Shown: piece after piece, positions 1 through 48,626 of the stretch
Numbering within the stretch: position 1 is the first letter of the stretch
Layout: each line of letters starts with the position of its first letter
Assembly: GCA_900322135.1 (NCBI GenBank)
Contig: ONYP01000019.1
Location: 1 to 48,626 of the forward strand
Reading direction: 5' to 3'
Origin: an uncultured Prevotellaceae bacterium
GTDB lineage: Bacteria; Bacteroidota; Bacteroidia; Bacteroidales; Muribaculaceae
Length of the DNA: 48,626 bases
The notes under the pieces: generated by a model
What the model saw: the letters and a program-made list of their open reading frames with translations, nothing else
What the model was told of the DNA's origin: nothing
The model's database searches: none
Translations under genes and position numbers: made by a program

Positions 1-1586
1 ATGCCGTCCTCGGTGAAGCTCAGGATGTCCTCATAGATGGCCCAATCGCTGTAGGTGCCGTCCGGGTAGCGAACGCGATACCAGATGGTGCTGGGCTCGC
101 TGGGAACGATCTCAACGAAGTAGGCGTGGATACCGTCGGTGGTGTAGCCGTTGAAGGTGGGAGCACCGGTCTTCTCGGTGGGTTGGGGAGTGCCACCTTC
201 CAGCGTGGTGAAGGGAACAATAGGAGTCCAGCCGCTGACATTGCCTTCTGCGTCTACACCCTGTACCTCAACCTCATAGTTAGTCTCGGGAGTCAGGCCG
301 TCGATGGTGTAAGGACTGGTTACGCCCTCAACAACGATCCACTCGTTGGGCTTACCGATGGTCAAGGTAACGTCATCGATGTTCAGCCAGAACATGTCGG
401 TCACGTTGTAGTGACGGATTGCAATGTAGCCTTCCTCGCCAGCGCGAGAAGTCAGGTCGTAGGTATACTCCGTGTAGGTGCCGGTAGCAACCTGGTCCTC
501 GCCAATCTGCGTCCAGTTCTCCATGTCGGTGGAAACAAATACACCGAATACCTCACTTGCATAACTGGCATCCTGGCCAGCAGCCCAGAAGGAGAATGTG
601 CCATCCAGTTTTACCTTGGGCGAAATCAGCCAGTTGTCGGGAGTGAGAGCAACGCCCGAATCCTTGTCATAACTTGCCGAGGCCATCAGACCTTCACCGG
701 TGTGGGGAGTCATCCTGCCGGTGGTGACACCAGTCATGTCGAAGTAGGTCCAGTTGAAGCCGTCACCATCAGCATCAACGAGGGTCCACTCGTCAACACC
801 CTCGTTGTTCTCGAAGCCCCAGGTCAGAACCTCAACATCGACAGCCTCACGATAGCGCAGGTTCCAAGCAGCGTTCTCGGCATCATCCCAAGTAACTACA
901 GCACTTGTTGCACCGGGCTCAACAGCCACATTCTCGGGCATTGCAGCAGCGGGAGCAGTCAGGGTGATGAAGTCTACCAGGACACGCAACTGGTCATAGC
1001 AGTCATAGTGACGGATAGCAAAGTAGCCCAGGCCCTGGAACTGGCTCAGGTCATAAGTATACTCGGCCCATTCAGTGGGAGGAGTAATCAGTTCGCTAAT
1101 AGGCACAGCTGCCTCGATGGCCTCGATGGTCAACTCCTCGCCAGGGATTACGTAAACCTGGAACTTATCAGGCCAGGAGCCCGAGTAGTTCTCGGCGAAC
1201 AGTGACAACTCGCCACCCAGGTTTACCAGGGGCGAAATCAGCCAGTTGTCAGGAGACAACGCTGAGCCACTGTAGTAACTGCGGGACGTCAGACTCTGAG
1301 CACCGCTGTAGGCATAGTAGGTGTCAACTTCCCAACTGTAGCCGTCACCGTCAGCATCATAGGCTGACCAGCCTTCAAAGTCCTCTTCAGTCTCAAAGTC
1401 CCATACATAGGTATCCATAGCCCTCAAGGGCATGTTAACGGTACCGTCAAAAGCCTTTACGGGCTGGAGTACTTTCGTGTCAAGGGCGCGGTCAACCTTG
1501 TCAACGCTTCTCTTGGCAGGAATAATCTGGGCCGTCATCGGCAGTGCCAATGCGACCGTCAACAGAACGAATAGAAATTTCTTCAT
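1..1586 (-). CDS. Secreted choice-of-anchor J / fibronectin III surface protein, partial (3' end off window)
   Basis: The frame is open from the ATG at 1586 down to base 3, 528 codons with no stop, so the C-terminus lies outside the window. Residues 1-20 form a signal peptide ending in MTAQ. Two homologous beta-jelly-roll modules of the choice-of-anchor J (cleaved adhesin, MAM-like) type follow, about residues 60-210 and 252-410; each has the pattern W-x-F-E, D-A-D-G-D-G, S-P-D-N-W-L-I-S-P and G-Y-x-A-I-R-H-Y. Fibronectin III strands flank the second module (about 215-248 and 412-462), so that module looks inserted into one Fn3 fold. Residues 472-528 resemble a chitobiase-like beta domain. 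Such proteins are exported and often carry a C-terminal sorting domain, which would be in the missing part. Codon choice (GGT, GCT, GTT, AAC, TAC) suggests high expression. The ligand is unknown. Confidence 0.85.
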   Translation of the reverse strand, partial: MKKFLFVLLTVALALPMTAQIIPAKRSVDKVDRALDTKVLQPVKAFDGTVNMPLRAMDTYVWDFETEEDFEGWSAYDADGDGYSWEVDTYYAYSGAQSLTSRSYYSGSALSPDNWLISPLVNLGGELSLFAENYSGSWPDKFQVYVIPGEELTIEAIEAAVPISELITPPTEWAEYTYDLSQFQGLGYFAIRHYDCYDQLRVLVDFITLTAPAAAMPENVAVEPGATSAVVTWDDAENAAWNLRYREAVDVEVLTWGFENNEGVDEWTLVDADGDGFNWTYFDMTGVTTGRMTPHTGEGLMASASYDKDSGVALTPDNWLISPKVKLDGTFSFWAAGQDASYASEVFGVFVSTDMENWTQIGEDQVATGTYTEYTYDLTSRAGEEGYIAIRHYNVTDMFWLNIDDVTLTIGKPNEWIVVEGVTSPYTIDGLTPETNYEVEVQGVDAEGNVSGWTPIVPFTTLEGGTPQPTEKTGAPTFNGYTTDGIHAYFVEIVPSEPSTIWYRVRYPDGTYSDWAIYEDILSFTEDG

Positions 1587-16265: not shown

Positions 16266-17591
16266 TTATTTCTTGGTTTCCTTGATTGTCTTGCCAGCGG
16301 CAGGCATTCCCTGGATGCGGGATGCGTCCTTCGGTGCAGGATTGTACAGGTAGTAACTTGCACTGCGTTTCTGGAAGGCCTCGGCATCCTTGTTCCAGTA
16401 GTCGGCCATGTCGGCCACCTTGTAGCGCTTGATGAAGCGCTCACGGATTTCCTTGCTGCCGCACACCTTGTCGAACATGGCATAGCGCTTGGGGTTCTGC
16501 TCGAACAGTTCCACCTGGGGGTACATCTCGTGGATAACCTGCAGGAAGTAGAACTGCGTCAGGCACAGGTTGGCGGCATCAGGGTCGGTGATGTAGGTCT
16601 GCACGCCGTGCACCTCCTGCAGCGACTGGTCCACCGCCACGCTCAAGGCGAAGAAGGGCTTGTAGTTGATGGGTCTGAAATGCATGCCCGGCAGGTTCAG
16701 GGCGTTCATGCGCATTGCCAGCGAGTCGGCATTGATCCACGAGGCAGCAAAAGTCTGGAACGGCAGCGTGTAGCCGATGCCGGTGTTGAAGATGTACAAC
16801 TCACCCAGGATGCCCGACACGGGATAGAAGAACGCGCTCTCGGGTGTGGGAATCTGCGGCGAAGGCAGTACCCAAGGCATACCCGTGTCGCGGAACTTCA
16901 TCTCGCGTTTCCAGCCCTGCATGGGGATGACGGTGAGTTTGCAGCCGTGGCCCGTCTTGGAGCGCTCGGCGATGATGCCCTCCCCGTTGAGGAACTGTGC
17001 CAACTCACCGGGAGTGAGTCCGTAGATGTAGGGGATGGGATACTTGCTCACGAAGGAGTAGTAGCCGTCCTCGACGAGGTTACCCTCCACCTTGTTGCCG
17101 CCCAGCGGGTTGGGACGGTCCAGCACCATGAATTCGGTGCCGTGCTTGGCACAGGCCTCCATGCACACGCCCATCGTGGCATAGAAGGTGTAACTGCGGC
17201 AGCCCACATCCTGGATGTCATACACCAGCACATCGATATCCTTCAGCATCTCGGCCGTCGGCTCATGGGTCTTGCCGAACAGCGAGTACATCTTGATGCC
17301 CGTCAGCGGGTCCACAGCGTCGCCCACGGCATCGCCCGCATGGGCATTGCCGCGCACGCCGTGCTCGGGGCCGAACAGCGCCACGAGTTTCACACCCGGT
17401 GCCTCGTTGAGGATGTCGACGGTGCTCTTGAGGTTATTATCGATGCCGCTGGGGTTGGTCACCAGTCCCACACGCTTGCCCTGCAACTGGGCAAAACCGC
17501 CGTCGCGCAGCACCTCGATGCCCGGCTTGACGACTGCACTGGCCGTCAATGCCGCCATCACCATACACACTGCAAATAATATCTTCTTCAT
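16266..17591 (-). CDS. namZ: Exo-beta-N-acetylmuramidase (NamZ, DUF1343, GH171)
   Basis: Releases MurNAc from the non-reducing end of peptidoglycan fragments. It has a signal peptide (about residues 1-19), so it acts in the periplasm or outside. DUF1343 hallmarks are visible: LFGPEHGVRG with the probable catalytic Glu76, VYDIQDVGCRSYTF (residues 123-136), LDRPNPLGGNKVEG, and WVLPSPQIPTPESAFFYP. Length 441 is normal. It lies directly upstream of the candidate MurNAc importer, kinase and MurQ, giving a complete path from MurNAc release to GlcNAc-6-phosphate. Confidence 0.93.
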   Translation of the reverse strand: MKKILFAVCMVMAALTASAVVKPGIEVLRDGGFAQLQGKRVGLVTNPSGIDNNLKSTVDILNEAPGVKLVALFGPEHGVRGNAHAGDAVGDAVDPLTGIKMYSLFGKTHEPTAEMLKDIDVLVYDIQDVGCRSYTFYATMGVCMEACAKHGTEFMVLDRPNPLGGNKVEGNLVEDGYYSFVSKYPIPYIYGLTPGELAQFLNGEGIIAERSKTGHGCKLTVIPMQGWKREMKFRDTGMPWVLPSPQIPTPESAFFYPVSGILGELYIFNTGIGYTLPFQTFAASWINADSLAMRMNALNLPGMHFRPINYKPFFALSVAVDQSLQEVHGVQTYITDPDAANLCLTQFYFLQVIHEMYPQVELFEQNPKRYAMFDKVCGSKEIRERFIKRYKVADMADYWNKDAEAFQKRSASYYLYNPAPKDASRIQGMPAAGKTIKETKK

Positions 17592-17649
17592 ATCACTAAT
17601 ATTCTTAAAATTTTATATTAATAAACAACTGATAGATAAGACTATTCGG

Positions 17650-19710
17650 TCATTTAGATTCTTCGTTGGTTTTGGGAGTCTCGTCCTTCTCCTTCAGGCC
17701 GAACTTGGGATCTACCTTAACAATCATCGCCACGATAATGGTGCATGCGCAGCAAATCATCGTCCAGATGAAAAAGTTCTGATAGCCCACGAGGTCCTCG
17801 AGCCAGCCGGCCATCATACCCATCATCATCGACAATGCCATGAAACCGGTGCAGATGGCGTAGTGGGCAGTCTTGTACGGGCCCTCACTGTAATAGATGA
17901 GGTAAAGCATATAGGCTGTGAAACCGAAGCCATAACCAAACTGCTCAATAAACACGCAGATGTTGATGGTCAGCAGGTTCTGGTCCTGGGTAAACGCCAG
18001 GTAGATGAACGTCAAGCAGGTCAGCGACATGCTCCACGCCATGGGCTGCAGCCAGTGCTTGAGGCCGCCCTTTGCCGCCACGATACCGCCAATGATGCCA
18101 CCGATGGTCAAGCCGATGATGCCGACGGTGCCGTAAACGATGCCTACCTCGCTGGTAGACAATGCCAAGCCGCCCTTATCCAGCGGGTCCACGAGGAACG
18201 GCATGATGATCTTGGTCAACTGGGCCTCGGGGAAGCGGTAGAAGAGCATGAACAGGATGGCTGCAACAGTCTGCCACACAGGGAACTTGGTGAAGAATGT
18301 CCTGAATGTGTCCAGGAAGCCCCTGACTATTTCGCTTGAAGTCTTCTTCTCCTGATTGGAATCGACAGCAGGCCTGGGCAGCGCCCAAGTGTGGTAAATT
18401 ACAACTATCAGGAAGAAGACCGACAACACAACGAACACAATGGCCCAAGCCATCGGAATGTTACCCGATGTGCCCAGGAACGAAGACGAAACATCTTTCT
18501 TGACTTTGTTGTCCACCGTGAAGTAGATATAGGCCAGTTTGTTCCAGTTGTTCTCGTTGAAGACGATGCGCGACTGCGAGGCCTTGATGTCGGTGCTGCC
18601 CTTGTCGTTAGCGAGGTTCAAGACATATTCCTTGCCTGCATCAGGTTTCTTGTTGAGGCGCACAGCCACGACAGCAAAGTTGTTGCTCTGATTGTTGGAC
18701 TTCACCTGCTTGAACTTGTCGGGGAATGTAGTGGCAATCCAGTTTTCAAAGAGGTTCTGCTCCTCGGCCTTCTTGGCGAGTTCCTCGGCTGTCGCGGCTA
18801 TGAGTTTAGCGTCGGAGGTATCACCGTAGTATACATAGCGGCCATTCTCCCAGACAGCGTTGACCAGCACGAATTTCTTTCCCTTGTATTCAAGGTCATC
18901 TTTCTCAGTAAAGGCAGGATCGGGGATGTAGAAGCCGTTGGCGATGTTCATTTTCTCGACCGAGTCGGCGATGGCCTTGGAATAGTCTGCAAAGTTCATC
19001 ACCGAGTCGCCCGACTGAATATCGGCGGGCGCCTTCACCGATGTCTTGATGTCGGCAGCACTGGTGACGAAGCAGATTTCCTTGCCCACCTGGTCACCAA
19101 CCAGGACATCGCTGGGGAGGACGGCCGAAACCGGCGCGCTGTTCACACCGGCATCAATGTTGATGCGGACAGGTTCAAGGCCCGAATTCATCTCGATCAC
19201 ACCTGCCAAGATGACAAGCAAGCCCTGCCCCACAACAGTAGCAATGCGGTAGAACGTGGAACGAATGCCCACAAACAGTGACTGCTCATGCTCGGTCAGC
19301 GCCAGCATATAGAAGCCGTCGGCAGCAATGTCGTGCGTTGCACTGGCAAAGCCCATCAGCATGAACACCGCAAACGTGAGTTGCACCCACCACGACGTCG
19401 GGATAGTGAATGCAATGCCCGCCAACGCAATAGCGACAATCCACTGCATGATGATGACCCACCAGCGCTTGGACTTGATAATGTCCACAAACGGGCTCCA
19501 GAAGGGCTTAATCACCCACGGCAGTCCCAACCATCCCGTGTAAAGGGCTATATCGGTGTTGGACATGCCCAGACGCTTGTACATGATTACTGTAATCGTC
19601 ATCACCGCCACATAGGGCAGTCCCTGGGCGAAATAAAGCGTCGGTATCCACGCCCATGGCGAGCGCTTTGTCGCTTTTTGTTCTTGACTGTCTTTCATCT
19701 TTATCTTCAT
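17650..19710 (-). CDS. ampG: AmpG-like muropeptide permease with large periplasmic insert
   Basis: A 686-residue major facilitator; AmpG relatives without insert are about 420-490. Residues 1-175 hold five helices with AmpG-like motifs (YFAQGLPY, GLPWVIKPFWSPFVD, SATHDIAADGFY). Residues about 176-415 are soluble, and by topology lie in the periplasm between helices 5 and 6. The second half of this insert (about 345-405, ending in SRIVFNENNWNKLAYIYFTV) looks like a Calx-beta/VCBS-type beta sandwich. Helices resume at IPMAWAIVFVVLSVFFLIVV and continue to about 660; the tail is charged. It should import disaccharide-peptide fragments. The upstream SpoIID-like gene ends only six bases before it. 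Confidence 0.8.
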   Translation of the reverse strand: MKIKMKDSQEQKATKRSPWAWIPTLYFAQGLPYVAVMTITVIMYKRLGMSNTDIALYTGWLGLPWVIKPFWSPFVDIIKSKRWWVIIMQWIVAIALAGIAFTIPTSWWVQLTFAVFMLMGFASATHDIAADGFYMLALTEHEQSLFVGIRSTFYRIATVVGQGLLVILAGVIEMNSGLEPVRINIDAGVNSAPVSAVLPSDVLVGDQVGKEICFVTSAADIKTSVKAPADIQSGDSVMNFADYSKAIADSVEKMNIANGFYIPDPAFTEKDDLEYKGKKFVLVNAVWENGRYVYYGDTSDAKLIAATAEELAKKAEEQNLFENWIATTFPDKFKQVKSNNQSNNFAVVAVRLNKKPDAGKEYVLNLANDKGSTDIKASQSRIVFNENNWNKLAYIYFTVDNKVKKDVSSSFLGTSGNIPMAWAIVFVVLSVFFLIVVIYHTWALPRPAVDSNQEKKTSSEIVRGFLDTFRTFFTKFPVWQTVAAILFMLFYRFPEAQLTKIIMPFLVDPLDKGGLALSTSEVGIVYGTVGIIGLTIGGIIGGIVAAKGGLKHWLQPMAWSMSLTCLTFIYLAFTQDQNLLTINICVFIEQFGYGFGFTAYMLYLIYYSEGPYKTAHYAICTGFMALSMMMGMMAGWLEDLVGYQNFFIWTMICCACTIIVAMIVKVDPKFGLKEKDETPKTNEESK

Positions 19711-44076: not shown

Positions 44077-44105
44077 TCTAGTTGTCTAAACACTATGCGT
44101 CTAGC
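44077..44105. repeat. Degenerate TCTAG array at the atpG/nuoI junction
   Basis: TCTAGT (44077), TCTAAA (44085) and TCTAGC (44100), imperfectly spaced. The atpG TAG stop is the complement of CTA at 44101-44103. It looks like a decayed member of the 9-bp family. Confidence 0.4.
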
Positions 44106-44935
44106 GTTCCACCTGTCCGCCCAGGATGTCGAGCAGTTCGGTAGTGATGCCCTGTTGACGCAGTTTGTTGTACTCCAGTTGCAGGCTGTCGAGCAGCTCC
44201 TTGGCGTTGTCGCTGGCCGCCTGCATCGCCATCACGCGCGCGCTCTGCTCGCTGGCCGTGCTCTGGATGAATACATCCTGGAGCATCGACTTGATGTGCA
44301 GGGGCAGCACGGTGTTGAAGATGGTGTTGGCGTCAGGCTCGAACAGGCAGGGGCTGTTGGCGGCACGCGGGGGCAAACACCTGCTTGCCGGTGGAGATGA
44401 AGTGCATGTACAGCACCTCCACACGGTCGAAGGTATGCTCCAGGAAACGCGTCTTCATCAGGTCGGTGAAGTCATACAGCTGCTCGCTGCCGCTGCGGGT
44501 GTTGAGCGCCACACGCTCGACCTGGATGTCGGCACCGGCAATCTTGGCCACCGCCTTGGTCATCTTCTTGCCCACAGGGACAACGGTGATGCCCACCTTG
44601 GAGCCATAGTCGGCACGCACTTGGCTGATTCTCGCCAACAACTGCTTGAAGATGTTGACATTGTAACCGCCGCACAAGCCGTCGTCACTGCCGAACACCA
44701 CCAGGGCAACACGCTGCACCTCACGCTCGACGATGAGCGGCGAGTCGAACTGCTGGTCGGTCACCAGCAGGTGGCTGATGACATGCTGCACCATGTGGCG
44801 GTAGGGCGAGAGACGCTGCAACTGGCCGGTGGCCTTGCGCATCTTGGACGACGAGATCATCTTCATGGCACTCGTCGTCTTCTGGGTCGAGGCTACCGAA
44901 CCTATTCGCGTCTTGAGTTCTCTTAATGTTGACAT
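44101..44935 (-). pseudogene. atpG: ATP synthase F1 gamma subunit, frameshifted
   Basis: The gamma stalk that couples rotor to catalysis is encoded in two frames. The first (44935 down to the shift) starts MSTLRELKTRIGSVASTQKT and runs to HFISTGKQV; the second resumes with RAANSPCLFEPDANTIFNTV and ends with the normal C-terminus ASEQSARVMAMQAASDNAKE and ITTELLDILGGQ. The shift is in a run of five C (plus-strand G5, 44369-44373): four C would give one continuous frame of about 277 residues. As read, the first frame stops at about 200 residues, without the C-terminal helix. A sequencing or assembly indel is the simplest cause; real mutation or slippage remain possible. Confidence 0.85.
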
Positions 44936-44959: not shown

Positions 44960-46555
44960 TTAACTGGCCGGGGCCACGGTATATTTCGCGGCGACATCGG
45001 CGGCAGCTTGCTTGAGCTTGGCCATTACATCGTCGTCAATCTTGCCCGAGCGCAGCACATCGAGCACATCGTGCTGGTGCTTGCCGCGCAGGAAGTTGAT
45101 GAACAGTTTCTCAAACTCGGCTACCTTGTCCAGGGGCACATCGCGCAACAGGCCGTTCACACCGCAATAGATGATGGCCACCTGTTCCTCGACCAACATG
45201 GGCGTATACTGGGGCTGCACGAGCAGACGCTCGTTCTTGCGGCCGGTGTCGATGGTGCGCGCGGTCACGGGATCAATGTCTCCACCAAACTTGGTGAAGG
45301 CCTCAAGCTCTCGATACTGGGCCTGGGCAATCTTGAGCGTACCAGCCACCTTCTTCATGCACTTAATCTGGGCGTTACCGCCGACACGCGATACCGAGAT
45401 ACCCACATTCACTGCCGGGCGGATACCCGAGTTGAACAGGGCCGACTCCAGATAGATCTGACCGTCGGTGATCGAAATCACATTGGTGGGAATATAGGCG
45501 CTCACATCGCCGGCCTGGGTCTCGATGATGGGCAATGCCGTCAGCGAGCCACCGCCCTTGACGATGGGCTTGAGCGGCGCGGGCAGGTCATTCATCACAC
45601 TGGCCACAGCCTGGTTCTCGTTGATCTTGGCTGCACGCTCGAGCAGACGGCTGTGCAAGTAGAAGATGTCGCCGGGATAAGCCTCACGGCCCGAGGGGCG
45701 CTTGAGGATCAGCGAGATCTCGCGGTAAGCAACAGCGTGCTTGGACAGGTCGTCGTAGATGACCAGAGCATCACGGCCGGTGTCGCGGAAGTACTCGCCG
45801 ATGGCGGCTCCGGCAAACGGTGCATAGTAACGCATCGACGCCGAGTCGGCTGCCGTAGCGGCAACGACGATGGTGTAAGGCAGGGCGTTGCTCTCCTCGA
45901 GTTTGTTGACGAGGGCAGCCACTGTCGAAGCCTTCTGGCCGATAGCGACATAGATGCAGTAGACCGGCTTGCCGGCTTCGTAGTTGGCACGCTGGTTGAT
46001 GATGGTGTCCACGGCTATGGCGGTCTTGCCAATCTGGCGGTCACCGATGATAAGTTCTCGCTGTCCGCGGCCGATGGGAATCATCGAGTCGATAGCCTTG
46101 AGGCCCGTCTGCAGCGGCTGGTTCACCGGCTGGCGGAAGATGACACCGGGAGCCTTGCGCTCCAGGGGCAGACGCAACTTGTCGCCCTCGATGGGGCCTT
46201 TGCCGTCGATGGGCTTGGCCAGCACATTGATAACGCGGCCCAAGAGCCCCTCACCGACCTCGATAGAAGCAATCTCGCCAGTACGGCGCACCTTCATGTT
46301 CTCGGTGACGGTGTCGACCTCGTCGAGCAGGATGATACCCACATCGCTCTCCTCGAGGTTCATGGCAACGCCGGTCACGCCGTTCTCGAACCTCACGAGC
46401 TCGTTGGCCTCGACATTGTGCAGGCCATAGGCGTGTGCCACACCGTCGCCCACCTCCAGGACGGTGCCTTCTTCTTCAAAGGCTACCTGCCTCTTGGCGA
46501 TGTCTTCGACGAGTTGCTGTTTCAGTATATCAGATATTTCACTGGGATTAATCAT
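44960..46555 (-). CDS. atpA: ATP synthase F1 alpha subunit
   Basis: A 531-residue regulatory nucleotide-binding subunit of F1. Family signatures are intact: [71 protein letters not shown]-type [20 protein letters not shown], and [17 protein letters not shown]. The P-loop reads GDRQIGKT rather than the usual GDRQTGKT. It lies 24 bases before atpG. Confidence 0.96.
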
Positions 46556-46567
46556 CGTTGGAATCTG

Positions 46568-47110
46568 TTATTTCTTTTGCAGTTGTAATCGCAATTCGTT
46601 CAACTCTCTCTTTACCGACGCATCGAGCACCAGGCCGTTGATGACCACAGTGAACCCGCCGATGAGTTCGGGGTCGATTTTCTTCTCGATTTCGAGTTCC
46701 ATGGCCCCGAGGCGTTTCTTCACGATGTCGATAATGGCATTGACCTCGGGCTCAGGCATGGGGACAGCGGTGGTGATGACCACATGGGCTATCTCGTGGG
46801 CCTCGCGGTAAAGGTCGACATAGGCTAAGGAAATCTTCTGCAGATACTCGGCTCGGTTGTTGCGCACGCACAGCAGCAGGAACTTGTCCAGTGAGCTGCC
46901 GGGTTTGCCGCCGACGAGTTTAAGCATGAAGGCTCCTTTGACCTCGTCAGAGATTTCGGGGTTGAGCACCGCGCGCTTGAGTTCGTCGATAGCGGTATAG
47001 CGGAAACTAAGCGTCTTCAGGAGTTCGTAGATCTCCTTAGAGTCGCCGTTCTCGACAGCGTACTTGTACAGCGCTTTGGCATATCGGCGTGGAATCAGTC
47101 CGTCACTCAT
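46568..47110 (-). CDS. atpH: ATP synthase F1 delta subunit
   Basis: A 180-residue OSCP-type peripheral stalk subunit. IPRRYAKALYKYAVENG at the N-terminus and ELIGGFTVVINGLVLDASVKR near the C-terminus are diagnostic. It links the b subunits to the top of F1. It is spaced 6 bases after atpF and 12 before atpA. Confidence 0.94.
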   Translation of the reverse strand: MSDGLIPRRYAKALYKYAVENGDSKEIYELLKTLSFRYTAIDELKRAVLNPEISDEVKGAFMLKLVGGKPGSSLDKFLLLCVRNNRAEYLQKISLAYVDLYREAHEIAHVVITTAVPMPEPEVNAIIDIVKKRLGAMELEIEKKIDPELIGGFTVVINGLVLDASVKRELNELRLQLQKK

Positions 47111-47116
47111 ATCGCG

Positions 47117-47614
47117 TTAGTTTTTAGTCTCAACCTCACTCAGATATTGGTCCACAAGCGCACGCTGGGCATCATCGCTGGCGATATTGCGGCGAATCAC
47201 CTTCTCGGCAATCTGCAACGCCAGGTCACCCACCTCGGTGCGCAATTGCTTTTCGGCCTCCTTGCGCGCCTGCTCAAGCGAGACTTGAGCGGCTTCGGTC
47301 ACCTTCTTGGCCTCGTCGGCTGCCTCGCTGCGCGCCTTCTCGATGAGTTCGTTGCGCGCCTTGGCGGCCTCGCGCAGGATTTCGGCCTGCTCGTTGTGGG
47401 CCTCGGCAATCAATTTGTCCGCCTCGGCCTTGGCATTGTCCAGGTGTGACTTAGCCTCCTGTGCATAGGCCACACCCTTGTCAATCAAGTCGGCACGCTC
47501 CTCCATCGACTTGATGATGAAGGGCCACGCCCACTTGGCAAGGATGCCAAAGAGGCACAGGAAGGCGATGAACATCCAGAACGCCAGGCCAAATTCAGGC
47601 TTGAAAAGTTCCAT
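47117..47614 (-). CDS. atpF: ATP synthase Fo b subunit
   Basis: A 165-residue peripheral stalk subunit: one membrane helix (FGLAFWMFIAFLCLFGILAK) and a long charged coiled coil to the end. Start chosen at 47614 (MELFKPEFG), the usual Bacteroidetes beginning; the frame stays open upstream to 47761 only because it crosses the truncated atpE in another frame. The start lies inside the 3' end of the shortened atpE frame. Confidence 0.93.
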   Translation of the reverse strand: MELFKPEFGLAFWMFIAFLCLFGILAKWAWPFIIKSMEERADLIDKGVAYAQEAKSHLDNAKAEADKLIAEAHNEQAEILREAAKARNELIEKARSEAADEAKKVTEAAQVSLEQARKEAEKQLRTEVGDLALQIAEKVIRRNIASDDAQRALVDQYLSEVETKN

Positions 47615-47783
47615 CTGGTAAACCGGTGCGGATGTCACCGGTGGATTCGGGCTGACGGGCGATAGCCTCCATAGCCGAGCCGCCAATGCGACCGATACCG
47701 ATACCTGCTGCGATTGCTGCGATACCTGCTCCAATTGCTGCGCCAAGATTGGCAATAGCATCTAATAAAATCATGTCTAACAT
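47595..47783 (-). pseudogene. atpE: ATP synthase Fo c subunit, truncated
   Basis: The first helix and the polar loop of subunit c are intact: AIGAGIAAIAAGIGIGRIGG and SAMEAIARQPESTGDIR. After residue 53 the frame runs into GLPDGTFQA and a stop, within sequence that is the leader and first codons of atpF. The second helix with the essential ion-binding carboxylate (expected as a stretch like MIIAAALVEGVAL) is missing, as is the atpE-atpF spacer. A c subunit of 62 residues cannot make a working rotor ring. A deletion of roughly 80-110 bp, real or from assembly, would explain it. Confidence 0.85.
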
Positions 47784-47862: not shown

Positions 47863-48626
47863 TCACTCGGCAGCCTCAAGCTCGGCCTCGTGCTCGTGGA
47901 CATGTGCCATCGAGATGAACATCGTGGACAGGATGGTGAACACATAGGCCTGGATGAAACTTACCAGCACATCGAGCAGCAGCATGAACAGCGACAGGAC
48001 TATCGACAGCGGTGTAATCGCAGCGCCGACACCCGTGCCGAACATGTTGCCGAAGATGAAGATCAACAGCATGAACACGATGACCACCATGTGGCCACCC
48101 ATCATGTTGGCAAAGAGACGGATCATCAACGCGATGGGCTTGGTGAAGATACCGAAGATCTCGATGACCTGCATCAGGGGCACGGGGCACTTGAGCGGCG
48201 TGGGCACATCGGGCCAGAACATCTCTTTCCAGTAGTGCTTGGTACCCGTCAAGTTGGTCACCAGGAAGGTGATGACAGCGAGCACTGCCGTCACGGCCAG
48301 GTTACCCGTCAGGTTGGCACCGCCGGGGAAGATGACAATCAGTCCCAGCAGGTTCATCGTCAGGATGAAGAAGAACACCGTCAGCAGGTAAGGCCCGTAC
48401 TTGGGCGCCTCCTTGCCCATAATGGGGCGGATGGTGTCGGTGTAGACAAAGTCTACCACCAGTTCAAGGGCAGCAGTGAAGCGGCGCGGTGCCTTCATGC
48501 CGTTGCGCTTGTACCAGTTGCGCACCTTAAAGACAATCGCGATCACCAGCAGGGCGGCAATCAGGATGCCGGCCACATTCTTGGTGATGGAGAAGTCCCA
48601 GGGACGCACCTCGGTGCCGTCGTCCA
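47863..48626 (-). CDS. atpB: ATP synthase Fo a subunit, partial (5' end off window)
   Basis: The frame continues through the window edge as DDGTEVRPWDFSITKNVAG, so the true start is outside; Bacteroidetes AtpB has an N-terminal extension, which fits. Five helices are visible and the essential arginine of the proton path is in PIALMIRLFANMMGGH. The C-terminus HVHEHEAELEAAE is acidic. The 79-base AT-rich spacer to atpE holds nothing else of note. Confidence 0.93.
   Translation of the reverse strand, partial: DDGTEVRPWDFSITKNVAGILIAALLVIAIVFKVRNWYKRNGMKAPRRFTAALELVVDFVYTDTIRPIMGKEAPKYGPYLLTVFFFILTMNLLGLIVIFPGGANLTGNLAVTAVLAVITFLVTNLTGTKHYWKEMFWPDVPTPLKCPVPLMQVIEIFGIFTKPIALMIRLFANMMGGHMVVIVFMLLIFIFGNMFGTGVGAAITPLSIVLSLFMLLLDVLVSFIQAYVFTILSTMFISMAHVHEHEAELEAAE

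What the first reader, a model, noticed from the sequence alone, without database searches (positions are those of the whole stretch)
47595..47783. atpE lacks its second membrane helix and the essential carboxylate
Seen: subunit c reads normally to residue 53, then runs straight into the leader of atpF and stops. The ion-binding helix is gone, while atpB, atpF, atpH and atpA around it are intact. Short repeats ACCGGT flank the junction area (CACCGGT occurs twice in 17 bases), which could promote deletion or assembly collapse. Known: the Fo ring needs both helices. If real, this strain has no working ATP synthase, striking for an anaerobe with an ion-pumping Nuo.
Basis: partly seen in the sequence, partly recalled or inferred. 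Interest (0 to 1): 0.72.

Follow-up and report, generated by a model that had tools for sequence, protein, structure and literature searches.

The report
Assembly gap in ATP synthase genes
The ATP synthase ring gene in this draft genome really does lack its second half as written, but an unrelated gene cluster of the same draft shows the same kind of damage, so it is most likely an assembly error and not a bacterium living without ATP synthase.

Summary
atpE (47595-47783, minus strand) reads normally for 52 codons, then jumps into the atpF leader; helix 2 with its carboxylate is absent. Against G007, the nearest by atpE of 60 relatives searched, 98 nt are missing. Read literally, the operon is broken twice, in a genome where no other rotary ATPase was found.

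It is probably not real. The window is one contig of a draft genome (145 contigs, 82.55% complete). In 184 kb compared with G007, the unrelated glycine-cleavage operon of the same genome carries similar damage: gcvH -54 nt, lpd -23 nt, gcvPB +20 nt tandem copy. The other atp genes tested are under purifying selection. In 91 of 94 genus genomes with a hit, atpE runs on through helix 2; of the other two exceptions, one has a run of N and one a contig end. Raw reads were not available, so a true, recent deletion is not excluded.

The parts
47595..47783 (-). atpE as assembled: 62 aa, helix 1 and loop native (residues 1-52), helix 2 absent
   Evidence: PF00137 profile positions 1-37 of 60 matched; DNA comparison with G007
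47626..47627 (-). deletion junction in atpE; 98 nt missing against G007, 1 nt microhomology (A)
47117..47611 (-). atpF, intact (Pfam ATP-synt_B)
46568..47110 (-). atpH, intact (Pfam OSCP)
44960..46555 (-). atpA, intact (531 aa in both genomes)
44101..44935 (-). atpG, broken: 50-nt deletion at 44371/44372 splits it into a 200-codon frame (44333-44935) and an out-of-frame remainder
   Evidence: PF00231 positions 1-180 of 285 in the first piece and 199-281 in the second
47863..48626 (-). 3' part of atpB, open at the contig end; its 5' part is on contig C118 together with atpD (and a frame that I take for atpC)
48528..48626 (.). terminal 99 nt identical to the first 99 nt of contig C118 (assembly-graph overlap)

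Best explanation
The missing helix is a local assembly error in a draft genome, assembled from a metagenome by all signs, of a gut or rumen Muribaculaceae bacterium (genus probably Sodaliphilus). Shown: a clean 98-nt gap in atpE, a clean 50-nt gap in atpG 3.3 kb away, and gaps or a duplication of the same kind in an unrelated conserved operon of the same assembly. Inferred: the organism itself carries full-length atpE and atpG, and the contig lost these segments during assembly, perhaps because parts of these operons are nearly identical between related species. The exact assembler step is not known.
For: The genome is a draft of 145 contigs, 82.55% complete. Among 85 contig ends compared, leaving out the six contigs that read N at both ends, 5 of 8 exact relations are 99 nt long (3 of 4 overlaps, 2 of 4 shared termini; the others 91, 77, 77), as a de Bruijn graph assembly leaves them. 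Same-type damage elsewhere in the genome: gcvH lacks 54 nt in frame, lpd lacks 23 nt and is split, gcvPB has a 20-nt tandem copy that splits it. G007 lacks 69 nt of gcvPB that G000 has. In the genus, 91 of 94 genomes with an atpE hit match on through helix 2 (to query residue 78-80); the other two exceptions are an N-filled gap (G090) and a contig end (G087), and none of the three is among the 48 best genomes. atpG is split inside one contig in 4 of 94 genomes, so such breaks recur in these drafts. dN/dS against G007 is 0.04-0.16 for atpE codons 1-52, atpF, atpH, atpA and both parts of atpG. Published experience: uncorrected local assembly errors put incomplete or incorrect protein-coding genes into databases; the authors suspect them to be prominent in IDBA-UD assemblies and likely occasional in all assemblers (PMC7111523, passages).
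Against: No reads were available, so lack of read support was not shown. A plain de Bruijn contig should only hold joins present in reads; I could not name the step that dropped the bases. The gap lengths (98, 50, 54, 23) share no common length. Identity to G007 does not step at the junctions, so no chimera was seen. atpE, gcvH and gcvPB lie in or beside 500-column blocks at 0.965 or more identity to G007 (median 0.85), but the blocks over atpG and lpd do not reach that, so near-identity between species does not account for each break. Both gaps in the window fall in one operon and I saw none in the other genes, which a real loss would also give. One of the four split atpG genes is in one of the 48 best genomes (G099), so splits are not confined to poor drafts.
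Confidence: 0.87

Rival explanations
1. The deletions are real and recent: this strain has lost F-type ATP synthase through a deletion in subunit c and a second one in subunit gamma, and lives by substrate-level phosphorylation with Nuo and other pumps making the membrane potential.
For: Two frame-destroying deletions sit in one operon within 3.3 kb; the other orthologues in the window line up nearly full length with G007 (read by eye). No second c subunit over the cut-off. A recent loss would leave the low dN/dS seen.
Against: The genome also has breaks in gcvH, lpd and gcvPB, which this story does not explain. No other rotary ATPase was found in the genome; in the genus, V-type subunit I gives short matches in 3 of 101 genomes, two of them just over the cut-off. 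In Bacteroides fragilis P207 few F-type insertion mutants were recovered, and the system is called a critical fitness determinant (PMC10790697, passages).
Confidence: 0.08
2. A true minority deletion variant in the sampled population was picked up by the assembler as the contig path, while most cells carry the intact gene.
For: The contig ends in atpB at a 99-mer shared with C118, as at a branch of the assembly graph; clean junctions fit a molecule that exists.
Against: Needs several independent variants at unrelated conserved loci to be chosen each time.
Confidence: 0.04
3. The 62-aa product is a functional short c subunit, or helix 2 is supplied elsewhere.
For: None found beyond the open frame.
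Against: Own-genome searches found no helix-2 piece and no second ATP-synt_C match over the cut-off; the tail is atpF leader out of frame; gamma is broken too. The genome is only 82.55% complete, so a copy in the missing part is not excluded.
Confidence: 0.01

Closest known systems
F-type ATP synthase subunit c (atpE, Pfam PF00137)
   Same: Operon place, start, helix 1 and RQP loop as in relatives
   Different: Helix 2 and its carboxylate absent from the contig
Local assembly errors in metagenome-assembled genomes (PMC7111523, passages)
   Same: Incomplete protein-coding genes in a draft genome; several in one assembly
   Different: The published test, no perfectly matching read across the site, could not be run here
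Broken atpE in draft genomes G090 (N-filled gap) and G087 (contig end, with an in-frame stop before it) of the same genus
   Same: Trouble in the same gene of other drafts
   Different: Theirs is marked by N or a contig end; here the join is silent

Membership tests
F-type ATP synthase subunit c | Glycine-rich helix 1 and polar RQP loop | tested here: met
   PF00137 match to profile positions 1-37 of 60; comparison with relatives' proteins
F-type ATP synthase subunit c | Second helix with the ion-binding carboxylate (role recalled) | tested here: not met
   Absent from the frame and not found elsewhere in the genome held
F-type ATP synthase subunit c | Place between atpB and atpF | tested here: met
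Local assembly error | Same-type breaks at unrelated conserved genes of the same assembly | tested here: met
   gcvH, lpd, gcvPB, all in one operon on contig C104
Local assembly error | No read matches the junction perfectly | not testable with these tools
   No raw reads held
Pseudogene / operon decay | Relaxed selection on the other genes of the pathway | tested here: not met
   dN/dS 0.04-0.16 against G007 for atpE(1-52), atpF, atpH, atpA and both parts of atpG; atpB, atpC, atpD not measured; a very recent loss would look the same

The most novel reading that the evidence does not exclude
A gut Muribaculaceae lineage has recently lost its only rotary ATPase by two deletions, in the c ring and the gamma shaft, and grows without ATP synthase.
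Probability: 0.08. Interest if true: 0.7.

Novelty: not a real feature. Interest (0 to 1): 0.08.

Why it matters
If the deletions were real, an anaerobe with Nuo but no rotary ATPase would show that such fermenters can do without ATP synthase. As an artefact it is a caution: silent gaps of some 20-100 nt can sit inside conserved genes of draft genomes used as species representatives and read like gene loss.

Tried and rejected
Repeat-mediated deletion between the ACCGGT copies: rejected, the bases between the copies are kept and both places carry ACCGGT in G007.

Deletion length equal to the assembly overlap (99 nt) as a fingerprint of a trimming error: 16 distinct relatives' sequences with the same atpF leader predict 97 nt missing in 13, and 98, 99 and 94 in one each. 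The other gaps (50, 54, 23) do not fit one length, so I do not lean on it.

Inter-species chimera: identity to G007 along the operon shows no step at either junction; not supported.

Automatic counts of broken genes in the 184-kb sample were too noisy (antisense frames, start-codon extensions, small compensating gaps). One search flagged 38 of 130 G007 genes as changed in G000 and 34 of 125 the other way; most look false by eye, I did not check each, and I use no rate from it. I rely on the clean gaps and the translations. The flank filter drops most long gaps: it saw 42 deletions and 22 insertions of 15 nt or more in G000 in all, many in diverged stretches. The atpB row of the dN/dS table is invalid (my coordinates were out of frame) and was dropped, as was its last atpB translation line (wrong frame). 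In one search the gcvH flank row failed (motif not found) and was dropped. In one search the loci on the minus strand were aligned in the wrong orientation; only the plus-strand rows were used.

A second assembly of the same species was not found: near records may be left out of genome contigs (note), the genome search holds one genome per species, and metagenome scans were capped at 0, so none was asked for. No structure prediction was run.

Full report
What is there. The window is the whole of contig C82 (48,626 nt) of a draft genome, G000: 145 contigs, 3.09 Mb, 82.55% complete, 2.08% contaminated. On its minus strand, from the right end, lie atpB, atpE, atpF, atpH, atpA, atpG and then nuo-type genes (the nuo names are read from the translations and recalled). 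The frame at 47595-47783 gives 62 aa. It matches ATP-synt_C only over profile positions 1-37 of 60. The relatives' proteins that were read in the right orientation are 79-81 aa and go on into a second helix.

The organism. G007, the closest by atpE of 60 relatives searched, lies on a 109,209-nt contig, the length of the record of isolate RUG575. G030's atpE contig (4,452 nt) has the length of a record of Candidatus Sodaliphilus fimicaballi. G007 and G030 are in the window's genus, so I infer genus Sodaliphilus, family Muribaculaceae.

The junction. The window and G007 match exactly for 34 nt before the gap and 98 nt after it, with 98 nt missing and 1 nt of microhomology. The native protein ends at residue 52; codon 53 straddles the junction.

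atpG lacks 50 nt against G007, with no microhomology that I could see, at 44371/44372. This shifts the frame: the first piece matches the gamma-subunit profile at 1-180 of 285 and the second, in another frame, at 199-281. Five other relatives aligned across this region have neither gap. In the orthologue list for the window against G007 I saw no other gene broken (read by eye).

Is there a substitute? A full-length c-subunit query finds only the window copy in G000. A 145-nt probe over the missing segment finds only its retained end there, besides nine matches at E 0.7 or worse. The two other ATP-synt_C matches are under the family's cut-off of 24 bits (16 and 11.1). Two places match the rotary ATPase catalytic family: atpA and a gene on C118 that I take for atpD. 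V-type subunit I has no match in G000. In the genus 3 of 101 genomes have matches to it over 74 to 107 of 815 positions, two of them just over the cut-off. Taken literally, no working rotary ATPase was found in this genome, which is however incomplete. In Bacteroides fragilis P207 few F-type insertion mutants were recovered, and the F-type system is described as a critical fitness determinant (PMC10790697, passages only).

Is it the genome or the assembly? I took 16 stretches of 20 kb from G000; 11 of 16 could be placed on G007 by a central tag. These 11, the window and the head of C118 gave 183,965 aligned nt. Eight gaps of 10 nt or more in G000 had both 40-nt flanks at least 32/40 identical. 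Four are in conserved genes: atpE 98, atpG 50, gcvH 54, lpd 23. The other four (13, 27, 28, 21 nt) look like low-complexity or intergenic sequence by eye; I did not annotate them. Six insertions met the same test: 15, 11, 19, 20, 69 and 10 nt. The 20-nt one is a tandem copy that splits G000 gcvPB; the 69-nt one is a stretch of gcvPB absent from G007; the 19-nt one is at the start of gcvPB, where G007 is the shorter. Which genome departs from the norm was tested for gcvH and, by Pfam, for lpd and atpG; for gcvPB it is judged from the broken frame. Without the flank filter there are 42 deletions and 22 insertions of 15 nt or more. So an unrelated operon of the same draft carries three breaks of the same kind within about 4 kb, and the relative used for comparison may not be free of them. 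I read this as a mark of the assembly and not of ATP synthase biology.

Gene by gene across the genus (101 genomes each, G000 included). atpE: 94 with a hit; in 91 the match runs to query residue 78-80, though 13 of these start only at residue 9 or 10. The exceptions are G000, G090 (ten N with unmatched sequence around them) and G087 (contig end, with an in-frame stop before it); all three are under 90% complete, while all 48 of the genomes at least 90% complete and at most 5% contaminated have a hit and none of them is among the exceptions. atpG: 94 with a hit; split inside one contig in 4 (G000, G099, G113, G121), of which G099 is among the 48; G001 and G002 are cut by contig ends. I did not look into the other three splits. 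gcvH: 93 with a hit; G000 alone shows two pieces in one open frame with the middle missing; G027, G118 and G122 are partial and G112 has a stop inside. The single-contig genome G062 has all three over their full length.

Assembly signature. C82's last 99 nt are the first 99 nt of C118, which carries the 5' part of atpB and atpD. Among 85 contig ends compared (of 290), leaving out six contigs that read N, 3 of 4 overlaps and 2 of 4 shared termini are exactly 99 nt; the others are 91, 77 and 77. That is the pattern of a de Bruijn graph assembly; that IDBA-UD at its default largest k would give 99 is recalled, not looked up. Chen et al. write that leaving local assembly errors uncorrected propagates incomplete or incorrect protein-coding genes, suspect them to be prominent in IDBA-UD assemblies and think all assemblers make them at times (PMC7111523, passages). 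Which assembler made G000 is not known.

Selection. Against G007, dN/dS is 0.11 for atpE codons 1-52, 0.04 for atpF, 0.15 for atpH, 0.05 for atpA, 0.16 for the first part of atpG and 0.06 for its remainder. Some rest on few differences (atpE 4, atpG remainder 6, atpF 8). The part of atpG downstream of the frameshift is conserved as protein, so it has been translated in frame until very recently, or still is.

Results against my reading. I could not show missing read support. The lengths of the gaps have no common value. Identity to G007 does not step at the junctions. atpE, gcvH and gcvPB lie in or beside blocks at 0.965 or more identity to G007 against a median of 0.85, but atpG and lpd do not, so near-identity between species does not account for each break. 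Two gaps in one operon would also fit real loss. The extra breaks that I rely on all lie in one other operon. I weigh these below the damage in gcvH, lpd and gcvPB.

Literature. A search for truncated c subunits in draft genomes (terms ATP synthase, c subunit, truncated, metagenome-assembled genome, pseudogene; 15 papers held at least four of the five, 12 listed) showed nothing on point in titles and abstract starts; no paper of that list was opened. Searches were seen as listings, apart from the two papers named above.

Verdict. Observation confirmed, and the damage is wider than stated. Most likely a local assembly error, 0.87; real loss of ATP synthase, 0.08.

Noticed in passing
   Followed up: yes
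L262:1669-6372 (G000 contig C104, about 21.7-26.4 kb): Glycine-cleavage operon of the same genome: gcvH lacks 54 nt, gcvPB has a 20-nt tandem copy that splits it, lpd lacks 23 nt and is split.
   Followed up: yes
L267:3488-4846 (G007 contig C21): G007 gcvPB lacks 69 nt that G000 has, and is 19 nt shorter near its start; the relative may have breaks of its own.
   Followed up: partly
window 1-120: The contig begins in a repeated element: near-identical copies start contigs C111 and C92 and related ones lie inside C31, C75 and C47.
   Followed up: no
window about 17396-19400: A 686-aa membrane-protein-like gene is about 99% identical to G007 over 2 kb while the median block identity is 85%; possible recent exchange or shared reads.
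   Followed up: no
L148:1-2501 (G090 contig C6): atpE of G090 holds ten N flanked by sequence that does not fit the gene, a scaffolding scar in the same gene.
   Followed up: partly
G099:C13:97606-98483: atpG of G099, a 92% complete genome, matches in two overlapping pieces, so it is split by a change other than the window's 50-nt gap.
   Followed up: no
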